Below, piece after piece: positions 1,289 to 40,331 of a stretch of 64,000 nucleotides of DNA. The position numbers and the translations under genes are program-made. Below the pieces are notes generated by a model. That model saw only the letters and a list, made by a program, of their open reading frames with translations, had not been told where the DNA came from and did no database searches. The stretch is from Mycoplasma zalophi (GTDB lineage: Bacteria > Bacillota_I > Bacilli_A > Mycoplasmatales > Metamycoplasmataceae). The stretch covers positions 1 to 64,000 of the forward strand of contig NZ_JAOOPZ010000004.1 of assembly GCF_025486335.1 (NCBI RefSeq), read 5' to 3'. The stretch's first letter is position 1. The number at the start of each line of letters is the position of its first letter.

Positions 1289-1304
1289 AAAAAAAAAAAA
1301 AAAA
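1289..1304 (-). repeat. Homopolymer tract T16 (coding strand of 1..1178)
   Basis: Sixteen consecutive A on the plus strand, so T16 on the strand read by the downstream surface-protein gene. It also follows the terminator hairpin of the aminopeptidase gene. It has the same length as the tracts at 6490-6505 and 33017-33032. Such tracts slip easily during replication. Confidence 0.9.
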
Positions 1305-5392: not shown

Positions 5393-6373
5393 ATGAATAA
5401 ATTTATGTTTTTAAAACCTGGAGATGAGATTAGAGTTGTTGCTCCTGCAAGAAGTCTAAAATTAATTGGTGAAGTAAATACTAATTTAGCTATAAAAAAA
5501 TTAGAATCTATGGGTTTTAAAGTAACTTTTGGTAAAAATGTTTATGAAGTAGAAAATCGTTTATCTGGTTCAATTAAACAAAAAGTAGACGATTTGCATG
5601 ACGCTTTCTTAGATAAAAATGTTAAAGCTATTTTAACAGTTATTGGTGGGTTTAATTCGAATCAATTATTACCATATATAAATTGAGAAATTATAAAAAA
5701 TAATCCTAAGATTTTTTGTGGATTTAGTGATATTACATCATTACATTTAGGTATTTTAAAACATGCTAATTTTCCTGTCTTTTACGGACCTCATTTTTCA
5801 TCATTTGCAATGTTGAAAAATTCAGAATATGTTGAAAAACAATTTAGAAATATGTTTTTAAATGAAGATAAAGAAGTACAATTAGAAGCATCAGAATTGT
5901 GAAGTGATGATTTATGATTTATTGATCAAGAAAATCGTAAATTGGAAAAAAATAGCGGTTGATGAAATATTCAAGATGGAGAAGCAAAGGGGAAAATATT
6001 GGGTGGTAATTTATCTACCTTATTACTAATAAATCCAACTTCAAATTTTCCAGATGTAAAAGAAGATACTATTTTAGCAATTGAAATAGTGTCGCTATAT
6101 GATTATGATAATTTTGAAAGAATGCTAGTTTCATTGATTCAATCACCATGATTTAAACATGTAAAAGGACTTATGATAGGAAGATTTTGTTTAGGTTCCA
6201 ATATTTCAAAAGAAGATTTAATTACTATGCTAACAACAAAATCAGAATTAAAAAATATGCCAATTGTTGCTAATTTAGACTTTGGTCACTCTATGCCTTT
6301 ATCTGTAATTCCATTAGGTTTAGAAGCTGAATTAAAAATTAACAACAAATCAGAAATAAAAATTTTTAAATAA
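5393..6373 (+). CDS. S66 serine peptidase, MccF / LD-carboxypeptidase-like
   Basis: The protein is 326 aa. The N-terminal Rossmann-like half has GDEIRVVAPA and the nucleophile elbow GFSDIT (Ser near residue 112). The C-terminal half has GGNLSTL, an acidic catalytic segment (ILAIEIV) and the His motif DFGHS, which complete the Ser-Glu-His triad of family S66. Known members are LD-carboxypeptidases that trim murein tetrapeptides and MccF-type hydrolases that inactivate microcin C-like peptide-nucleotides. This organism appears to have no murein, so a role in peptide or antibiotic hydrolysis is the better inference. AAAGGAT lies before the ATG. Monocistronic: it has its own promoter and a terminator at 6391. 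Confidence 0.85.
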
Positions 6374-6390: not shown

Positions 6391-6414
6391 AAAAATCAGG
6401 CAACTGATTTTTTT
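6391..6414 (+). terminator. Terminator after the S66 hydrolase
   Basis: AAAAATCAG-gcaa-CTGATTTTT hairpin with T tail, 18 nt after the stop. Confidence 0.8.
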
Positions 6415-6486: not shown

Positions 6487-6516
6487 TTGTTTTTTTTTTT
6501 TTTTTGATTGTATAAT
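6487..6516 (+). promoter_or_regulatory. Promoter with a T16 tract inside the spacer
   Basis: A -35-like TTGTTT (6487-6492) and a perfect TATAAT (6511-6516) are 18 nt apart. The spacer consists of the rest of the T tract plus GATTG, so gain or loss of T changes the -35/-10 distance. It drives the giant protein gene at 6593. Whether expression really varies is an inference. Confidence 0.6.
6490..6505 (+). repeat. Homopolymer tract T16
   Basis: Sixteen consecutive T between the -35-like element and the -10 box of the giant protein gene. Confidence 0.92.
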
Positions 6517-6592
6517 TTGTAAAATACTGCTTAGCATTCTAATAATAAAATTTATTTATAAATTCTTTGCTATTTGCAGTCGGGAGAAAGAA

Positions 6593-9500
6593 ATGAACTT
6601 AAATCAAAAGAAATTAAAGAAAATAAGTGGAATATTAGCTGTATCTACTGCTACTTTAGCAGCCACTACAACAGCATTTATTGTTGAAGAAGCTAGATTA
6701 AAAAATCTAATCCAAACTCAACAAAAATTATGAAACAATTTAAATGAATTTAAAAACACTGAGTTAAAAGATGATGAATTTTTATCAAAAATAGTACAAG
6801 ATATTTTAGATGATAATCCAGTGTTAAATATTTTTTATGATACATTTTCAAAGGTTAAGATAAAAATTAATAATCTTAAATTTTCTTTACAAAAATTTGT
6901 AACGTTAGTTTCAAATAATAAGGAAAACAGTTGAAAAAAATTTAATTCACTAAAGGAAGAAATAAAAAATTACATTAATAATGAATTAAAATTTTTGGAA
7001 TATGAAAATTTAAAAAATGAACTTCAAGAAGCAGTTCAAAACTCAGATAATAATTTAAATTCAAATTCTAGCCAAAAAGAAATAGATAATCAAACTGAAG
7101 GTCTTCAAGATATTTTTGATCAAATTAAAAAAAACAAAGCTATCAAAGACGATAATATTAAATCAATGGCTTTTTCTGACTATGAAACAGCTTTAAGAAA
7201 ATTAAATGAATTTATTAATGATCCTTTATCATTGCATGATTTTTATAATGAATTATATTCAGATGAAAAAACTAATCGTGATGAAATTATAAAAGATATT
7301 AGTTTTGAAAATTCTAATGTAGGAGATATTTTAGAAGCAAAACAAAAATTAATTCAAGAACTTGAAGATGCAACTAAAAAAGCGTATAAAGTTTCTAAAC
7401 AAGAGCTTCAAAGAGTTTATGATGAAGCTAAAGTATATTCAAGTGAAATATTAATTACACCAGATGATGTTCAAACAAAAGAAATTTTATTAAACTTTTC
7501 AAAGGAAAAATATGATGTAGGAATTGAAAGTAATGAATTTGAATTTGTTTATGACAGTATAAGTAAAATTACAAGCTACATAGAATCTGCAAAAGTTAAA
7601 AAATATTTAAATGATGTATTAAGAAATCATTCAATTGATACTTTAAAAAGTGCTCAAGAACTTGCAAATAATTTTTTAAATGATTTTTCCGACAATAAAT
7701 ATCCAGATATTAAACAATACGTATCTGATATTTTAACAACTGAAAGTCAAGATATTGATTCAAAAACATTTGACAAAATATATGAATCTGCAGATAAAAT
7801 AATTGAATCCTTAAAAATTAAAAAAGCTGAAGCAGTTACTGCTTATAATACACAAAGAGCGAAATTAAATGGAATTAAAGATGAATTAACAGAACCTAAA
7901 TATGAGTCAATTAAGCAAGAAATAATTAATTTGATAACGGAAAAAGATGCAATAATAAATAATCCAGATTCAACCACAAGAGATATTTTAGATGCAGTGG
8001 AAATATTAAAAAGCTTTGAAAGTCAAATCGAAAATAAAAAACAAGCTAAAGATAATATAAATTCAACATTTAGTGAAATTGAAAATTACATAAAAACTCA
8101 CACACATCCAGAAGATGCTAAGTCAATAAATGAATTACAAGAAGCTTTAAATAGTGTTAAAGAAAAAACAAAAAACTCTTCAAATACAGCTGAAATTCAA
8201 CAACAAAATAATGAATTATCAATTATTTTTGAAAAAACAAAACAAAAGGTTAATGAAACAGCAACAAATCGTGAACAAGCAAGCACAGAATATGAAACAG
8301 TTGCAAATAAAGCAAATAAATTAATATCAGAATTAGAAGTAAATATACAAAAATATCCTAATTTAGCTGAAGAATTAAAGACTAAAAAATCAGAAATTGA
8401 TGAAATTGTTGCTAAAAAAGATACTGAATCAACAAGCACACAAATAACACAAGCAAAAAATGATTTAGAATTAAAATTAAAAGAAATAGAAGCTAAAAAA
8501 GATAAAATCGATTTAGAAGAATCAAAAACTAAATATAAAAATAAATATTCTGAAGCATCTAATTACGGAAACTCATTAGATGAAGAAAAATACTCATCAA
8601 TCAAAACAGAATTAAAAAATAAAATTGCAGAAATTAATGACTTGTATGAAATAAGCATTAATAGCGAAGAAAAAAATGATAAACAAAAAAATGTTGACGT
8701 TAAAGAAGCAATTAAAAATATTCAAATTGCTCTTGATAAAGCTAAACACGACAAAGAAACCTTAGATAAAAATCGTAAATTCCAAAGTTATTTAGCACAA
8801 AAACATTTAATTGAAAATTATATTGATTCTGATTTAAAAGATTCTAAATTTAAGTTTATAAAAGATAAGTTAAATGAAGCAATTGAAACAAATGAACAAT
8901 TATTAGAAAATGATCCAGATGCTGCTGAACCAACATTAAAAGATTCAGTAACTGATGAACAAATTCAAGCATCAATTGATAATTTAACAACTATATTTGA
9001 AGCTAATAAAGAACTAAAAACATCAAAAGATAACTTTGATCTTCAAGTAGAAGATGCTGAAACATTATTATCAAAAATTAAAGCACCTGTTTTAAATAAA
9101 GATGATGAAGAACTTTATAATACTTTAAAAAATAAAGTAACAGAATTACAAAAATTTTTTAAAGATGATAATAATAAAACAAAAGACAATTTTGATCAAA
9201 AAGCAAAAGAATTATCAGGTGCAATAACTCAAGCAAATGACAAATACACTGAAAATAAAGCCAAAAGAAAACAAGCAAGAATTAATTTACAAGCAAAAAT
9301 TGATTCAATTAAACAATATGTCCAAGACAACTTACAAGAAAATAAAGATGGAACTTTTGTTACAAAACCCGAATATATAGCTACTGAAAGAAAAATTTTA
9401 GAAGAATTAGAAAAAGCAAAAACAATTCATGATAGTGCTTCTTCAACTGAGAAAAATTTAATTGATGCTTTAAATTCTTTAAATGATCAAGAAAAAATTC

Positions 9501-12500
9501 TTAAAGCATCAGAAGCATTTGATAAACAAGAAAAAGAAGCTTCAGATTTTTACAATACCTTAGATGATAAATTAGATAAAAATGTAAAAAATACATTAGA
9601 TTTAGCAATAACAAATGAAACCGATAATAAAATCAGTGTAGCAAATAACTTTACAAAAAATACAGCAACTATTGATGAAACAATTGATCAAATAAATCAA
9701 GCAAAAGAAAATCTAAATCAAGCATTAGAAGCTGCAAAAAATCAACAACTAGAAATTTTCCAAAATGCTTATGATAATTTATCTAAACAAGCAGATCAAT
9801 TATTGACTGAATTAGATGAAACTAATGGAGAAGATGCAAATAAACATTCTAAATACCCTGAAATTGCAAGAGCATTAAAAGACATAAAAGATCCAGAAGA
9901 TGCAAAAGCACTTTCAACATCTACACCTAAACCAACAATCGAGATTTTAAAAGAATCACTTCCCAAATTACAAAAAGCATATGATGATGCTGTTTTAGCT
10001 AAATCAAAATCAGATTTTGATAAAGTTTATGGCGATATTTTAGATAAATTTAAAGATACAGAAGGTTCTACAAAATATCAAAATCTAAAAAATGCAGTTA
10101 TAGAACATTTAAAATTACAAAAAAATATCAGAGATAATGATGATTCAATTGCACAACAAATCAATGAAGCTACTGAAGTACTTAAATCACAAATTTCGCA
10201 ATTATATTTAATAAAAGAAAGTTTTGATGAGTATAAAGATGCTTTTAAAGAGGTTTCAGATTACAATGATAGTTTAACTTCTGAAAATAATGAATCTAAA
10301 GACATTTTAACTAATGCTTTAAACACCTATAAAGAAAGTAATATAGGTGCTGATAATGCTTTAAATCCTGAAAAATATAGTGAATTTAAAACAGGATTAA
10401 AAAAAGCTCTTAAAGACGCAAAAGATATTGAAAGTTCAAAAACAAACTATAAAAATGAACTACAAAACACAACTTCTGATGACGAATTTGAAAATTATCC
10501 TGAAGCATTAAAAAAATATAAAAAAGCAATCGAAGATATTACAAAAGAAGATGGTTCACTTGCACAAGATTTAAAAACAGCTAAAACTCCAGAAGAAATT
10601 AAACAAGCATATGACAATGCAACAAATGCTCTTAAAAAAGCAAAAGAAGATATAGCTTTAAATAAAGCAAAAGAAGATTATGATAAAAAAGTAAAAGAAT
10701 TACAAACATTAAAAGATTCTTTAAATCCAAGTAATCAAGCTGAAAAAGCAATTATAGATGAATTACAAAACATTGAACATTCTTCAAAATCATCAATAAA
10801 AGCAAAAGAAGATTCAAAAACTATTATAGTAAATGACTATACAAAAACAATAACTACATTAGACGATGCAATATTAAAAGCTAAGTTAGATAAATCTAAA
10901 ATAGATTACGAAAATACAAAACAACAAGCACAAGCAACTTCTAATGAACTTGACGGAAATTATCCTAAAACAAAACAATATTATGATGAAGAACTGTTAA
11001 AAATTGAAAAAAAATTAACAACTAGTCTTACCGAAGCAGGAGAAGATAAACAAAAACAAAAAGAAGCATATGATGCAGCTAAAAAGGCAATTGAAACATT
11101 AAATGAAACTTTAGAGGCTAAAAAAACAGAAGAAACAAATGATAATAAAGCTAAATATGAAAAATCATTAGAAGAGTTTAATAAAACCAAACAAGAAGCC
11201 GAAAATATTAAAGATGAAGCTTTAAAAGCAAAAATAAAAACAGAATTAAATGATGCAAAAAATAAAGCTGATGCAATATTAAATTCTGAACCAAAAACCG
11301 CTGCTAAATATGAAGAAGCTAAAAAAATATTAGATGCTGCAAGTAATTTGGCTAAAACTCAAGAATTTGATAAATTAAAAGCTGATGTTGAAGAATATAT
11401 AAAATCAGATTTAAATGATGCTAAATATAATCAAATAAAATCCGACTTAGAAAGTACAAAAAATAGTCAAGATGCTATTGTTCACCCTACAGAAAATCAA
11501 GATAAACTAAATCCCGAAACAATTAAAGAAGCAATTGAAGATCTTCAAGATGCATTTGATAATGCTAAAAAACAAAAAGCACAAAAAGACTTTGATGATG
11601 CATATGATGCACTAAAAAATAAAGGTGCTAATGATAGTATTAAAAAAGCAATTGAAAAAGCGGTTTCAGATCAAAAAGCTGTTAGAGATAATGTTGATTC
11701 AACAACTGAAGAAATTAAGAATGTTACAACTCAATTAAATAATGCAGAAATAAGCAATAAAATTACTGAAACTAACAATAAAAAATCAGAATATGATGAA
11801 GAAATTAAAAAAATTCTTTCTGGTGAAAAATTAGAAGAAAAATTTGGAAACAATGAAAGAGCAAAACAAAATTATTTAAATGAAGTTAAAAAAGCTCAAG
11901 AAAAATTAGATAGTATTTTAAATTCAGATAATTCTGATTTAGACAGTATAAAAGATGCTTATAATCAAGCAAAAGAAAGATTACAACAACTAAATTCCGA
12001 TGCTAATATAAATCAACAAATTGCTGCAGATAAATACAGACAAGCGCTTGAATCAGCCAAAAATAAATATTCTTCATTAAACGATTTAGAAGAAAGTAAA
12101 ATCAAAAAAGATCTTGGGGACATAGTAACTCAAAATACAATTGAAGAAGCTGAAATTGATTCAACTTCAACTGCTATATTAGAAGAACAAACAAAAGCAT
12201 TAAATGATGCGGTCACAAAAGCCACTCAAGAACAAGAAAAAATGAAGCAAGCAAAAAATGTTTATGAAGCTAAAGTTTACGAATTAAATTCAGCAAAAAC
12301 AACATATCCAGATTTTGCTAATGAATTACAAACTGCTATAAATAGTTCAAATTCAAATATATCGGCAAATCAAAAAGCAAAAACAATACAAGCAAGTGAT
12401 TATAATGAAGAAACAGATACTTTAAGAGTGATTTTTGATAAAGTTAAAGCTAAAGATAGTTTCGATAAAGAATATAAAGAAATTACTGATGCTGTGGGTT

Positions 12501-15500
12501 CTGAATCAAAATATCAAAAAATTAAAAAAGCTATTGAAAATGATTTAAAACCACAAATAGAAATTAGAAATAACACAAATTCTAGTGCTTCAAATATTAA
12601 TCAAGCTAAAAATAATTTACATAAACAAGAAAATATTACTAAAATTTCTAAATATAAAAATTTATTAGATAGATTAGTTGAAAAAGAAACTGAACTTGCA
12701 GATTCAAAAACTACTTTATATAGCAATGATCCTGAAATTCAAAGTTACATTCAAAGTGTTTTAGGTAATGAAAATAATCTTCACAATTCAATTACAAATG
12801 AACAAGCATTAACTGACAATGCATATTCATCAAGACAAAACAAAATTGAAGAAACAATCACTAATGCAAGCAATATAAAAGCATCTAAAAATAGTTATAC
12901 AAATTCAAAAACAACATTAGAGAGAAATATTAATGCTATAACTGGAAACAGCAAAGCAAAAGAATTATTAAGTGCTGAAAAGAACCAAATTATTTCTACA
13001 TTAAATTCAGATATAACTAGTGCAAATAATGATCCTACAAAAATAAAAAAAGCTTTTGATAAAGCAACTACAAATTTAAATTCATTGCAAAATAATATAG
13101 ATTGATATAAAGCAGTCGGAGAATATGAGGCTAAAAGAAAAGAAGTTGAAGATTATAAAAATAGTTTAACTAAACCCGAATATAACAAAGTTAAAAATGT
13201 TGATTTAACAAATGCTATTTCTTCAGCTGATGGAAATGTAAATAAAACAAATAAATATAGTGGCAAAACCGCTCAAGAAATTAGAAATCAGATTAAGCCA
13301 TTAACAAATGCAAAATCATCTGCTCAAACTGAAGTTGCAAATATAAATACTAATAAACAATCTTATGATGCTACAGTTACAGAATATACTACATTTAAAA
13401 ACGATGCAAAATATGCTGAATATAAATTAGATTTAGAAACATTTTTATCAAACAATCAAAATTCATTAACTACAAAACAAAATAATAATACAATTTTTTC
13501 AACTGATTTTTCTACAGCTAAATCACAATTAGAAAATAAAATGAGAGATGTGTCTGCATTAAGATATCAAAAATTAAGTGAGACTGTAGAACGTTATGTA
13601 AATAATACCCTAAAAAGTGATTATTACAAAGATTTAAAAGCAGATCTTGAAAGAACAAAAAATACAGAAGATAGTATTTCTCTTCCAAATAATAATCCAA
13701 CACGAGAACAATCTGAAGGATCATACTCAAGATTAGATACTAAATTTAATAACATAAAAACAAGAAAACAATCTCGCGATAATGCTATAAATCAAATGAA
13801 TACTTCAAGAAATGATTTTCAAACAAAAAAATCTTTAATATCAGCTCATTATAATAAAGATATTAATATAGATAGTTGAATACAACAAAAAATTCAGGGC
13901 ATAGAAGATTCAGTTACAAATGCAGTTAATAATGGTACACTCAGTGATCAAACATTTCTTGATGCTAAACAAAAATATGATAATTTAGAAAAAGAAGCAT
14001 ATCAAGAAATAGCAAAACAATTAAATACAAAAATTGAAGAAGTTCTTTCAGACCCTGAAAATGATAAAATAGTCGAAAGTCAACAAAATTATTCAAGATT
14101 ATCACAACTAAAAAACTCACTTTCTAAAGTAAATTACAATAGTTCAAATTATGCAGATGCTATAAAAAATATTTATGATGAAGCAATACAAAATATTAAA
14201 AAAATTAATGATAATAAAAAAGAATATGAAAAAGCACATAAATTAGCAGTTCAAAATCTTAATAAACAAAAAGAATTTGTAACAGCTATTGATAATGCTT
14301 TAGTTCATCTTCCAACACCAGATAATAGATGAGGAAGAAGTTTTAATCCTATTCCACCTGCAGAAAATTCTTCACCAGTTCCTGCAGATCAAAATTATGT
14401 ATTAAAAGTTGACAATCAACAGTTTAGAACTGCAAATACATCTGCAAAAACTGCTTATAACAATTTAGAAGAAGAGGTTAATAGTAAATCTATAAAGAAA
14501 AATAAAGATTCACAATTAGTAAATATTTCAAATGATATTGACCTAATGTTTTTAACTAACAATTTAAATACTCTTGTTAATAACACAGAAAAATTTATAC
14601 AAGTATCGAAATTAAATCAATCTGAAAACGGATTTATAAATAGACAAAATGATCAAACACAAATTAATGGATTTACAAGATTATCTGAAACAAGAAATTT
14701 AAATAATGTTTTACAAAAAGAGTTTCTTGAATCTTACAAAAATAATACAAACAGCAATGTATATAGAGATAACAAAATTAGACTGATTAATGATTATGTA
14801 GAATATAGAGATAAATTTTTTAATTCTATAAAATACTATGAACAAGAAATGGATATGTTAAAAGATAAACTAAAAGAATTCGTTGCTTATGATGAAAACG
14901 GACAACCAGGAAAATATGTACAGCAATTTAGAAAATTATATTCTTATTTGCCTTTTCTTGTTGGATACCAAAATTGATATAAATACTTAACATTCTTTTA
15001 TAATAATTTATTTATAGGTACTAATGAATATGAAAATTTTGACTTTTTCTTTTCATATGATTCAAAAGGACAACCAATTAATTTTAACTATAAGAATATA
15101 TATGAAGATGTACTAAGATTACAAACATCAACCACTCCAGGGAATAATGAAAGCATAGAAGCGGTTATAAAAAATATTGAAAATAGGGCTGGAAATTTAG
15201 CAGCAAGAAACTTTAGTTCAAATTGACCACTTAAAAATTATTCACAATATTATTGAAAAAATTATAGTACATGACCACAATTTAAATTAAGGGGCTCATC
15301 TGATTCTTACGTTATTAATGAATATATTCGAAAAATGGGATTTTCTTTATTAAATAAAATTCCAAACAAAAATAAATCTAACAATCTTTATATACAATTT
15401 TCAAATAAATTAGATTCTTTAAAAAGAGAAGGAGGTCCATCATCAACACAGGCTGTACTTCATGATTACAACAATTATCAAAATAAAATTAAAGATGTCA

Positions 15501-15667
15501 TTAATTATTACTTTTTAGTTATTGATAAACTTTATGAAGAAAAAAATAATAAAGAATACAAACAATTATTACTATGAGATGGTAGTGGAGCAAATCCAGA
15601 AAATACAACAATAAATAAAGAAATTCATTATGTAGATGGAAATAATTTTGTATTTAAATTATTATAA
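6593..15667 (+). CDS. Giant membrane-anchored helical-repeat protein (FIVAR/GA-like)
   Basis: A single open frame of 3,024 aa. All TGA codons (for example 13103-13105, 13877-13879, 14975-14977, 15575-15577) fall at plausible Trp sites. GGGAGAAAG precedes the ATG. A basic N-terminus and one hydrophobic helix (about residues 12-30) form an uncleaved signal anchor; I see no lipobox. From about residue 130 to 2500 the protein is built of roughly 75-90-residue units following the pattern Y..I...L..AI......D..S..I..AI..L..A...AK, i.e. three-helix bundles resembling FIVAR or GA modules of long Gram-positive adhesins such as Ebh. The last 550 residues differ: Trp/Tyr-rich with few repeats, perhaps a binding head. 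Lys/Glu/Asn content is very high and Cys is essentially absent. It probably forms a long extracellular fibre. Adhesion or host-protein binding is inferred from architecture only. Confidence 0.85.
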
Positions 15668-23321: not shown

Positions 23322-24596
23322 TTAATTAGTTTTTTCAACTACAATTCTTTGTCCTTTAACTATTAACTTATGACCTGGTCATTCAATTATTTGTGATTTA
23401 CCATCCTTTGATTTATATGATAGTGTAATTACTAAATTTTCTGAGTTTTCATGTTTTAGTATCGAATCTATTTTTGTTATTGTTACACTAGCATAATCTT
23501 CTTTTGCATTTACAATAGCTTTAATTGGTCAAAAACCAGTGCCTGGTTTTGTAGCTAATAAGTAAAATTCATAATTTTTGAAATTTTCATTTGAACCAAT
23601 TCCTTTTATCCTAAGTACTAAATTTTTTGCATTAGCATAAATATAATCAATTTTAAATTCATTAGTTTGAAAGCCATCAACATCCCCGTTTATTGATTCT
23701 CCTTTTTGTGTATTTAATTGTGTTGTATTGTTTTCATTGCTTTTATTGTCGTGTATTTCTTTCTTTGTTTCCATATTTTGTTTTTCTTCAGTTTTTGGTT
23801 CTTTTGGTTCTTTTGGTTCTGTTTTTTGAATATTATTTGAGTTTGTGGATTTTGCATTTTCTTTTTGCGTATTTGGAGATTCTTGTGTATTTGTGCCGCT
23901 TCCAACATTATTTTTTAAATCATTTTCAGATTTATCTGGTGTAGAATTTTTTGGTTGAGTTGCATTTTCTTTTGGCGTACTTGGAGATTCTTGTGTATTT
24001 GTGCCGCTTCCAACATTATTTTTTAAATCATTTTCAGATTTATCTGGTGTAGAATTTTTTGGTTGAGTTGCATTTTCTTTTATAATTTCAGAATTAGCTG
24101 GCTGCGTAGAATTTTCTTGTTTTTTTAGGTTTTTTAATTTTTCACCACTTGTAGAATTATCATTGTTAACTTTATTTTGGCTTTCATTACTTAAATCATG
24201 TCTTGGCTGTTGTGGTTGACTTAGATCATTGCTTGAACTTTGATTTTCATTTATTTTTGGAGTTGATGTTAAATTACTATTTGAATTTGGTGCTTCTGGT
24301 TTGTTTTTTATCTCTGTATTTTTTGTTTGGTTTTGAGTATTTTGAGTGTTTTTCGGTGCTTTATCACTTTGTTTGGTTAAGTTTGTTGTATTGTTTGTTT
24401 TTGGTTTTTGCGGTGTAATAATTGGTTTGTTTTCTTTTTGTAAATTATTTTCATTACTTAATTCACTTTTATTCGCTTTATCAATAGTTTCTTTTGCTTT
24501 TTGTGCGTTGGTATTATTATGAGCGCAAGAAATCGCTATAAACGGTATGGTTATTGACAAAGGCAATAACAAAATAAAAAACTTATGTTTTTTCAT
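23322..24596 (-). CDS. Low-complexity lipoprotein with internal tandem duplication
   Basis: 424 aa. Signal peptide MKKHKFFILLLPLSITIPF with lipobox AISC at about residues 22-25. Residues 30-300 are a Pro/Asn/Thr/Gln/Lys/Ser-rich stalk, containing two near-identical 36-residue repeats (ENATQPKNSTPDKSEND core, then NNVGSGTNTQESP). A compact C-terminal domain of about 120 residues follows (VDGFQTNEFKIDYIYANAKN onward, ending VVEKTN). AAGGAAC precedes the ATG. The architecture is a lipid anchor, a variable-length stalk and a terminal beta-rich domain. It resembles size-variable mycoplasma surface lipoproteins; the binding partner is unknown. Confidence 0.82.
23867..24082 (-). repeat. 108-bp tandem duplication inside the lipoprotein gene
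   Basis: 23867-23974 and 23975-24082 are nearly identical over 108 bp (36 codons), with one clear mismatch (GCGTAT/GCGTAC). The unit length preserves the frame, so copy number can change without breaking the gene. Confidence 0.9.
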
Positions 24597-33079: not shown

Positions 33080-34171
33080 ATGAGAATAAAATATAAAAAA
33101 ATATTATTATTAACTATGTTTGCTACTAGTGCAATTGCAGCTATTTCTTTAGTTAGTTGTCAAAAAAATGAAACAAATGTAAGTAACAAAAATACTGATG
33201 TTGAAAAACCAATTCAATATAAAGTAAAAGAAATAACGCTTCCAACACAAAGTAACGAAAATAAAGAATCATCTTTTACTGAATTTATTAACGAAATTAA
33301 TTCAGTTAATTCTTTACCAAAAGAATACAATGAAATTTTTATAAAAATGCCATTGTTTAACGTGCAAAAAAAATTTACACGTGAAGATTTTTTAACTAAT
33401 GTCCTTCCATTAGTAAATAAAACAAATATAGATTTTAATTTAAACGAAGAAAGATTAGAATTTGTTATTGACACAGATATGACTTTAAAAGAAATGGAAG
33501 ATTTTTTAGAAGAAGAATTTAACAATTATTATGTTAGCGACAAATTTTTTGCACAATATTTAAAACAAGCAATAGAAAAAGCAGATTATACCAAACTTAA
33601 AACAGGTAAAATAACACAACAAAAAGCACAAGAAAACAATAAATTAACTGAATATCAAAACGTTGTAACTTTAATAAAACAATGATTTTTTGATCAATCA
33701 ATGATAACAATATCAGATGATATAAAAATTGTTGAAATTAATTACAATCAAAAACCAGCATGATCTTTAAGTTTAAAATTTGCTTTAAATAACCAAACAT
33801 CTAAAACAATAAAATTAGACTTCAAAAAAATACCTAAAAATTCAAATTGAGATGAACAAACAATTAAAGAACAAAATTTAAATCGTGGTTTGGCAAACAA
33901 ATTAAAAAACAAATGAAATGAAGTAGTTGCTAATTCAGAATTTGCAAATAAATTTGAAAATATCCTTCAAACTTTAAAACTAGCTATCTTAGTAGATGAT
34001 CAACATAAAATTGCTTCTAGAGCATCAGTTATAACTTGAAATATATTAAGCGCTAATATTAGTAAAAAAGTTAAAGCGCCTAGATTTATTTTAAAAAGTT
34101 TAGGAGCAAAATTTGTTATTCCTAAACTTACAAAATTAATTACTTCACTAGAAGAAAAATTAAAAAAATAA
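33080..34171 (+). CDS. Lipoprotein, function unknown
   Basis: 363 aa. MRIKYKKILLLTMFATSAIAA signal peptide with lipobox SLVSC (Cys near residue 29). CGGAGAAAA before the ATG. The mature protein begins with an Asn/Lys/Glu linker and then a helical, charged domain ending LGAKFVIPKLTKLITSLEEK. No known motif. Isolated between two terminators, with its own T-tract promoter. Candidate variably expressed surface antigen by context. Confidence 0.8.
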
Positions 34172-39907: not shown

Positions 39908-39964
39908 CTAATTAGTAACATTTTGCTGTTAACAAAAAAGTACATTAAATAAAATTTATTTTTT

Positions 39965-39993
39965 TTGTAAAATTTAAAAAAATAGTGTAAAAT
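39965..39993 (+). promoter_or_regulatory. Promoter of 5S rRNA copy 2
   Basis: TTGTAA (39965-39970), 17-nt spacer, TAAAAT (39988-39993), 7 nt to the 5S start. The same elements precede copy 3 at 40117-40145. Confidence 0.7.
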
Positions 39994-40000
39994 ATTAATT

Positions 40001-40101
40001 ACAGCAATCAAAGAGAAGGGGTTCACCTGATTCCATTCCGAACTCAGCAGTTAAGACCTTCATCGCCGACGATACCGTATGGGAAAATAGGACATTGCTA
40101 T
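40001..40101 (+). rRNA. rrf: 5S ribosomal RNA, copy 2
   Basis: Same 101-nt sequence as copy 1, with matching helix I ends and terminator T run. Confidence 0.92.
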
Positions 40102-40152
40102 TTTTTTTATCTTTTTTTGTAAAATTTAAAAAAATAGTGTAAAATATTAATT

Positions 40153-40253
40153 ACAGCAATCAAAGAGAAGGGGTTCACCTGATTCCATTCCGAACTCAGC
40201 AGTTAAGACCTTCATCGCCGACGATACCGTATGGGAAAATAGGACATTGCTAT
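40153..40253 (+). rRNA. rrf: 5S ribosomal RNA, copy 3
   Basis: Third copy, 152 bp after copy 2, with the same promoter and T run. Confidence 0.92.
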
Positions 40254-40331
40254 TTTTTTTATCTTTTTTGCTAAAATGTAGATATAAAAAATAGTTAATA
40301 AGTCAATAAATAATAAACATTGTGAGAATAT

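What the first reader, a model, noticed from the sequence alone, without database searches (positions are those of the whole stretch)
6487..6516. T16 tract inside the promoter spacer of the giant surface protein
A 16-T homopolymer lies between a TTGTTT -35-like hexamer and a perfect TATAAT, so slippage would alter the 18-nt spacer and switch transcription. Promoter-spacer homopolymers are an established phase-variation device in mycoplasma lipoprotein families such as vlp of M. hyorhinis. The gene here is a giant helical-repeat protein.
Basis: partly seen in the sequence, partly recalled or inferred. Interest (0 to 1): 0.75.

Follow-up and report, generated by a model that had tools for sequence, protein, structure and literature searches.

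The report
Slippery T-tract promoter of giant mycoplasma protein
A run of 16 T's sits just before the core promoter of a giant mycoplasma membrane protein and is most likely a copying-error-prone expression switch of a kind already known in mycoplasmas; the same kind of run also precedes other genes in this genome, including the antibody-capturing and antibody-cutting operon.

Summary
Homopolymers of 9 or more are otherwise almost absent: the 767-kb genome has seven runs of 10 or more, six of them 15-17 long, all intergenic. All six lie upstream of genes: the giant protein, an unknown anchored protein, two lipoproteins, an SPFH protein and the MIB-MIP antibody-cleavage operon. Five of the six recur at orthologous promoters of a related species; three have changed length (16/17, 16/18, 15/17), and none is interrupted. 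All 24 tracts in three species are 15-19 nt. T-tract-then-TATAAT is strongly directional across the family (42 sites against at most 6 control windows).

Best explanation: slippage changes the geometry of the promoter, so transcription of the giant protein varies between cells. Switching itself is not shown. This is a new member of a known kind (vlp, maa2, vmm, M. bovoculi vpb). A caution: the similar vpma T-tract of M. agalactiae was shown not to switch expression. The most interesting extension is the tract on MIB-MIP, found in three species.

The parts
6490..6505 (+). T16 homopolymer between the putative -35 and the -10
   Evidence: T17 in G023, T16 and T18 in G013 paralogs
6487..6492 (+). 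TTGTTT, proposed -35-like hexamer (weak; 3/6 to TTGACA; not conserved)
   Evidence: alignment shows TCGTTT in G023; not listed by the scan
6506..6510 (+). GATTG, fixed link between tract and -10, identical in G023
6511..6516 (+). TATAAT, putative -10
   Evidence: identical in G023 and in both G013 T-tract paralogs
6517..6592 (+). predicted start-site region and 5' UTR with GGGAG (6582-6586) as ribosome-binding site
   Evidence: Sequence; start site not mapped (inference)
6593..15667 (+). giant protein, 3,024 aa, no Cys, N-terminal hydrophobic anchor, helical; ortholog 76% identical in G023
   Evidence: no Pfam or NCBIfam match
6391..6412 (+). stem-loop then T's after the upstream S66 peptidase gene; separate from the T16 tract
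   Evidence: Fold -9.2 kcal/mol, z -2.27
5393..6373 (+). upstream gene, S66 LD-carboxypeptidase-like
   Evidence: PF02016/PF17676
33017..33032 (+). T16 tract, second member of the set, upstream of lipoprotein 33080-34171; T16 at the G023 ortholog
1289..1304 (-). T16 on the minus strand, upstream of an anchored protein gene that runs off the window start; TATAAT 37 nt downstream; T18 in G023

Best explanation
The T16 run is a contingency element in the promoter of the giant membrane protein. It fills the space between the -35 region and a TATAAT -10. DNA polymerase slippage adds or removes T's, which changes the spacing and helical phase between the -10 and everything upstream of the tract, so RNA polymerase uses the promoter well at some lengths and poorly at others. 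The cell population is then a reversible mixture of high and low (or on and off) expressers. Shown here: the anatomy, its conservation with changed length, the association of such tracts with -10 elements, and the near-absence of other long tracts. Inferred: slippage within a population, promoter activity, and length dependence.
For: Exact anatomy. Bimodal run lengths: six runs of 15-17 and only one other run of 10 or more in 767 kb. The orthologous promoter in G023 keeps tract + GATTG + TATAAT with T17 instead of T16, flanks 87-92% identical; G013 paralogs have T16 and T18 with 4 nt before TATAAT. Five of six G000 tracts lie at orthologous promoters in G023, three with changed length. None is interrupted, although flank divergence gives a rough joint probability of 4e-4 for no substitution in all five (ignores purifying slippage). 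All 24 tracts of three genomes are 15-19 nt. Family scan: 42 distinct T14-N3-6-TATAAT sites in 31 of 135 genomes, against at most 6 windows in 4 genomes for the reversed pattern. Genes behind such tracts in the genus are mostly anchored proteins, lipoproteins and MIB. Spacer indels switch vlp, maa2 and vmm (PMC2268961).
Against: No reads, isolates or mRNA were available; each species is one genome, and 1-2 nt differences in homopolymers can be assembly error. The TTGTTT -35 is weak and not conserved. The comparable T-tract immediately upstream of the vpma -10 was concluded to play no role in switching (PMC2268961). Of the homologous giant genes, the G023 tandem copy has no such tract, and the C4 paralog and its G023 ortholog have a TA repeat instead.
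Confidence: 0.74

Rival explanations
1. Graded tuning, not an on/off switch: the tract changes DNA bending and phase next to a promoter whose -35 matters little, giving a rheostat as in H. pylori sabA.
For: The -35 hexamer is not conserved while tract and -10 are; across the family the tract's 5' edge lies 17-28 nt before TATAAT in 34 of 35 sites. The sabA T-tract gives multiphasic output with period about 10 bp (PMC4081817).
Against: The sabA tract lies upstream of the -35, this one ends 5 nt before the -10 inside the spacer; mycoplasma spacer tracts reported to switch behaved as on/off (PMC2268961, PMC10502178).
Confidence: 0.3
2. The tract is a static promoter element (a rigid AT-rich spacer) whose length variation has little effect on expression, as concluded for the vpma T-tract.
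For: vpma phase-locked mutants never lost expression despite a T-tract immediately upstream of the -10 (PMC2268961). All tracts here lie within a narrow 15-19 nt, which could be a fixed structural optimum.
Against: Lengths differ at 3 of 5 orthologous promoters; pure runs this long are otherwise avoided in the genome, so keeping a mutable one as plain spacer looks costly; most promoters do without one.
Confidence: 0.2
3. The T-run is the tail of a transcription terminator or a by-product of AT-rich drift.
For: Terminators end in T-runs, and the tract at 1289-1304 does lie a few bases after a stem-loop; composition alone allows about 4 runs of 15 or more per genome under low-order models.
Against: For the T16 here the upstream gene has its own stem-loop at 6391-6412, about 78 nt earlier, and no stem directly precedes the tract; runs of 11-14 are missing and runs of 15-17 are all in upstream regions, with TATAAT within 10 nt in 3 of 6 (0.5 expected); conserved in the relative with its -10.
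Confidence: 0.06

Closest known systems
M. hyorhinis vlp promoters
   Same: Homopolymer in the promoter region of surface-protein genes; length changes switch transcription (PMC10502178, PMC2268961).
   Different: vlp uses adenines and drives lipoproteins of one gene family; here thymines and a single giant anchored protein. Switching not tested here. The A-tract members of this genome (MIB-MIP, small lipoprotein) are closer to vlp in layout.
M. arthritidis maa2 promoter
   Same: Nucleotide insertion or deletion in the -35/-10 spacer turns transcription on or off (PMC2268961, citing Washburn 1998). From memory, not checked, that tract is also poly-T.
   Different: Different gene product; the original paper was not in the library.
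M. bovoculi vpb contingency locus
   Same: Each gene has a putative promoter with a homopolymeric T tract (PMC3931370).
   Different: Array of five paralogs next to each other; here scattered single genes of unrelated families. Also predicted only.
M. agalactiae vpma promoter T-tract
   Same: T homopolymer immediately upstream of the -10 of a surface-protein promoter (PMC2268961).
   Different: Switching is by Xer1 recombination; the T-tract was concluded to play no role. This is the main caution against the claim.
M. mycoides vmm (TA)n spacer
   Same: Simple repeat in a promoter spacer with on/off transcription (PMC10502178, PMC3053259).
   Different: Dinucleotide repeat. A TA repeat ((TA)14.5 against 11.5 in the relative) does occur before the paralogous giant gene on C4, but downstream of its best TATAAT.
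H. pylori sabA T-tract
   Same: T-run of similar length near a core promoter, variable between isolates, tunes adhesin expression (PMC4081817).
   Different: Tract adjacent to and upstream of the -35, graded output, different phylum.

Membership tests
Promoter-spacer homopolymer switch (vlp/maa2 type) | Pure homopolymer between -35 and -10 of an intact surface-protein gene | tested here: met
   T16 ends 5 nt before TATAAT, ORF intact; the -35 half is weak and surface location is inferred
Promoter-spacer homopolymer switch (vlp/maa2 type) | Tract length differs between related sequences at the same promoter | tested here: met
   T16 against T17 in G023; T16 and T18 in G013 paralogs; between species only
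Promoter-spacer homopolymer switch (vlp/maa2 type) | Length varies reversibly within one population | not testable with these tools
   No reads or multiple isolates held
Promoter-spacer homopolymer switch (vlp/maa2 type) | Transcription depends on tract length | not testable with these tools
   Needs mRNA measurements in clones of known tract length
Promoter-spacer homopolymer switch (vlp/maa2 type) | Recognisable, conserved -35 hexamer upstream of the tract | tested here: inconclusive
   TTGTTT 3/6, TCGTTT in the ortholog, no TTG in G013 paralogs; mycoplasma -35 boxes are generally weak (own knowledge)
H. pylori sabA-type T-tract rheostat | Tract lies upstream of the -35, outside the core promoter | tested here: not met
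   Tract ends 5 nt before the -10; not filed as a member, though a graded effect is not excluded
M. hominis Lmp proteins (for the giant protein) | N-terminal transmembrane helix and repeats | tested here: inconclusive
   Hydrophobic residues about 12-30 by eye, helical model of residues 301-700; regular sequence repeats were not demonstrated
M. hominis Lmp proteins (for the giant protein) | 57-residue Lmp motif (PMC2751442; absent from 2 of the 8 Lmp proteins) | tested here: not met
   Best motif score 22/57, equal to shuffled sequence
MIB-MIP operon (for the A15 tract on C4) | MIB and MIP families encoded side by side | tested here: met
   TIGR04526 E 1e-215 and NF045842 E 2e-221

The most novel reading that the evidence does not exclude
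One shared device, a 15-19-nt A or T run close to a -10, independently switches a small set of unlinked genes: giant helical anchored protein, lipoproteins, and the MIB-MIP antibody capture and cleavage operon. The antibody-cleaving system itself would then be phase-variable, and each cell would carry one of many combinations.
Probability: 0.45. Interest if true: 0.62.

Novelty: new member of a known kind. Interest (0 to 1): 0.45.

Why it matters
If true, it adds a giant helical membrane protein family, and more notably MIB-MIP, to the mycoplasma genes that switch through promoter homopolymers. That would mean mixed populations in which only some cells cleave antibodies. It also gives a simple rule for finding such genes from sequence alone: isolated 15-19-nt runs ending a few bases before TATAAT in genomes that otherwise avoid runs of 9 or more. 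The published failure of the vpma tract to switch makes the question open and directly testable.

Tried and rejected
Chance from AT-richness: length alone does not reject it under low-order models; the missing 9-14 class and the upstream-only location do. Terminator tail: rejected for this tract, the upstream gene has its own stem-loop; open for the 1289 tract. G at the 5' edge as a sign of a TTG -35: the genus looked G-rich, but across 35 family sites C (17) exceeds G (13) and G/C edges are enriched on both sides, so this does not identify a -35. Lmp membership of the giant protein: motif at shuffle level. Fold of the C-terminal 465 aa: single-sequence model useless (pLDDT 35). Fold match of the helical part: nothing at E <= 0.001. 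The SPFH gene found no match in G023 or G013, so that tract could not be compared.

Full report
OBSERVATION. The sequence reads TTG, a run of 16 T's, GATTG, TATAAT: TTGTTT 6487-6492, T run 6490-6505, GATTG 6506-6510, TATAAT 6511-6516, spacer 18. The ATG at 6593 opens a 3,024-residue frame in genetic code 4.

IS IT MORE THAN CHANCE. In this 75% AT genome a run of 16 is not by itself improbable: order-1 to -3 Markov models expect about 4 runs of 15 or more per 767 kb. The same models expect about 480 runs of 9-12; the window has none between 9 and 15, and the genome has one run of 10 and none of 11-14. So runs are avoided, and six exceptions of 15-17 stand alone: C6:1289, C6:6490, C6:33017, C3:79076, C3:214254, C4:249020. 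All are intergenic (coding fraction of the window 93%). An exact TATAAT lies within 10 nt of the tract in three of the six, with 0.5 expected from the intergenic rate (P about 0.015).

WHAT LIES BEHIND THEM. The giant protein; an anchored protein that runs off the window start; a lipoprotein at 33080; a small lipoprotein on C3; an SPFH/zinc-ribbon protein (PF13421); and, on C4, an A15 run 5 nt before TATAAT of an operon whose two genes match MIB (TIGR04526) and MIP (NF045842) far above cut-off. Five of six therefore precede genes with surface-type N termini; the SPFH protein is the exception.

RELATIVES. In G023 the giant gene (76% identical, 3,025 aa) sits behind the same S66 and leucyl-tRNA synthetase genes and carries T17-GATTG-TATAAT. 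In G013 two homologs carry T16-GGAA-TATAAT and T18-GAAT-TATAAT. Five of the six tracts are present at orthologous promoters of G023: 16/17, 16/18, 15/17, 16/16, 15/15; the two unchanged pairs are also those with the most similar flanks (93-98%). No tract is interrupted; simple substitution at the flank rate would leave all five clean with probability about 4e-4, an argument that ignores slippage as a purifying force. All 24 tracts of the three genomes are 15-19 nt.

THE -35. TTGTTT is TCGTTT in G023 and lacks TTG in G013. What is constant is the tract and the short link to the -10. Over 35 family sites the tract's 5' edge lies 17-28 nt before TATAAT in all but one (a T72 run), so the tract spans the spacer and reaches the -35 position.

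FAMILY-WIDE. T14-N3-6-TATAAT occurs at 42 distinct sites in 31 of 135 genomes; the reversed pattern gives at most 6 windows in 4 genomes. A14-N1-6-TATAAT occurs in 37 genomes, its reversed control in 8. In the genus, T-tract promoters mostly drive anchored coiled proteins (one with the Myco_arth_vir_N signal) and one lipoprotein; A-tracts drive lipoproteins, including one matching the variable surface lipoprotein model, and MIB in three species.

THE GIANT PROTEIN. No Cys, hydrophobic anchor near residues 12-30, no Pfam or NCBIfam match. A single-sequence model of residues 301-700 is nearly all helix with one confident stretch (pLDDT about 90 at 181-260 of the model) and no significant structural match. 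It resembles M. hominis Lmp proteins in layout but lacks their 57-residue motif (PMC2751442).

LITERATURE. Spacer indels switch vlp, maa2 and vmm (PMC2268961; PMC10502178). M. bovoculi vpb genes have T-tract promoters (PMC3931370). The vpma T-tract was concluded not to generate variation (PMC2268961). H. pylori sabA shows a graded T-tract effect (PMC4081817). I found no report of promoter tracts on MIB-MIP in the papers held; this is a limited search.

VERDICT. A conserved, probably slippage-prone promoter element; new member of a known kind. Shown: anatomy, conservation with changed length, directionality, rarity of other runs. Inferred: promoter activity, switching, on/off rather than graded. 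Confidence 0.74 that length variation modulates expression of the giant protein. The confidences given for the rivals are not exclusive of this figure: the rheostat is a form of it.

LIMITS. One genome per species; homopolymer lengths can be off by one or two through sequencing; no reads or transcripts; species unnamed.

Noticed in passing
L027 4990 (G000:C4:249020-249034): A15 run 5 nt before TATAAT of the MIB-MIP operon; A17 in G023, A14 before MIB in G006. Possible phase variation of antibody cleavage.
   Followed up: partly
L038 11433 region (G000:C4) and L039: A second giant paralog (2,293 aa), next to a second MIB-MIP pair and F1-like ATPase genes, has a (TA)14.5 repeat before its start; (TA)11.5 in G023. 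The repeat lies downstream of its best TATAAT.
   Followed up: partly
L025 about 5016 (G000:C3:79076): Small lipoprotein behind the A15 tract is short and lacks the upstream start that the relative's copy has; it may be decaying while its promoter tract is kept.
   Followed up: no
39955-40277: Tandem duplication, period 152, that looks like two 5S rRNA genes in a row (98% match).
   Followed up: no
23852-24081: 108-bp tandem repeat (2.1 copies, 98%) in the region of a 424-aa minus-strand ORF (23322-24596), possible size-variable protein.
   Followed up: no
5393-6373: S66 LD-carboxypeptidase-like gene (a family acting on peptidoglycan peptides or microcin C) in what should be a wall-less bacterium.
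   Followed up: no
G000 whole genome: A/T runs of 10-14 are almost absent (one run of 10) against about 480 runs of 9-12 expected by low-order models, so the genome avoids runs strongly outside the six tracts.
   Followed up: yes
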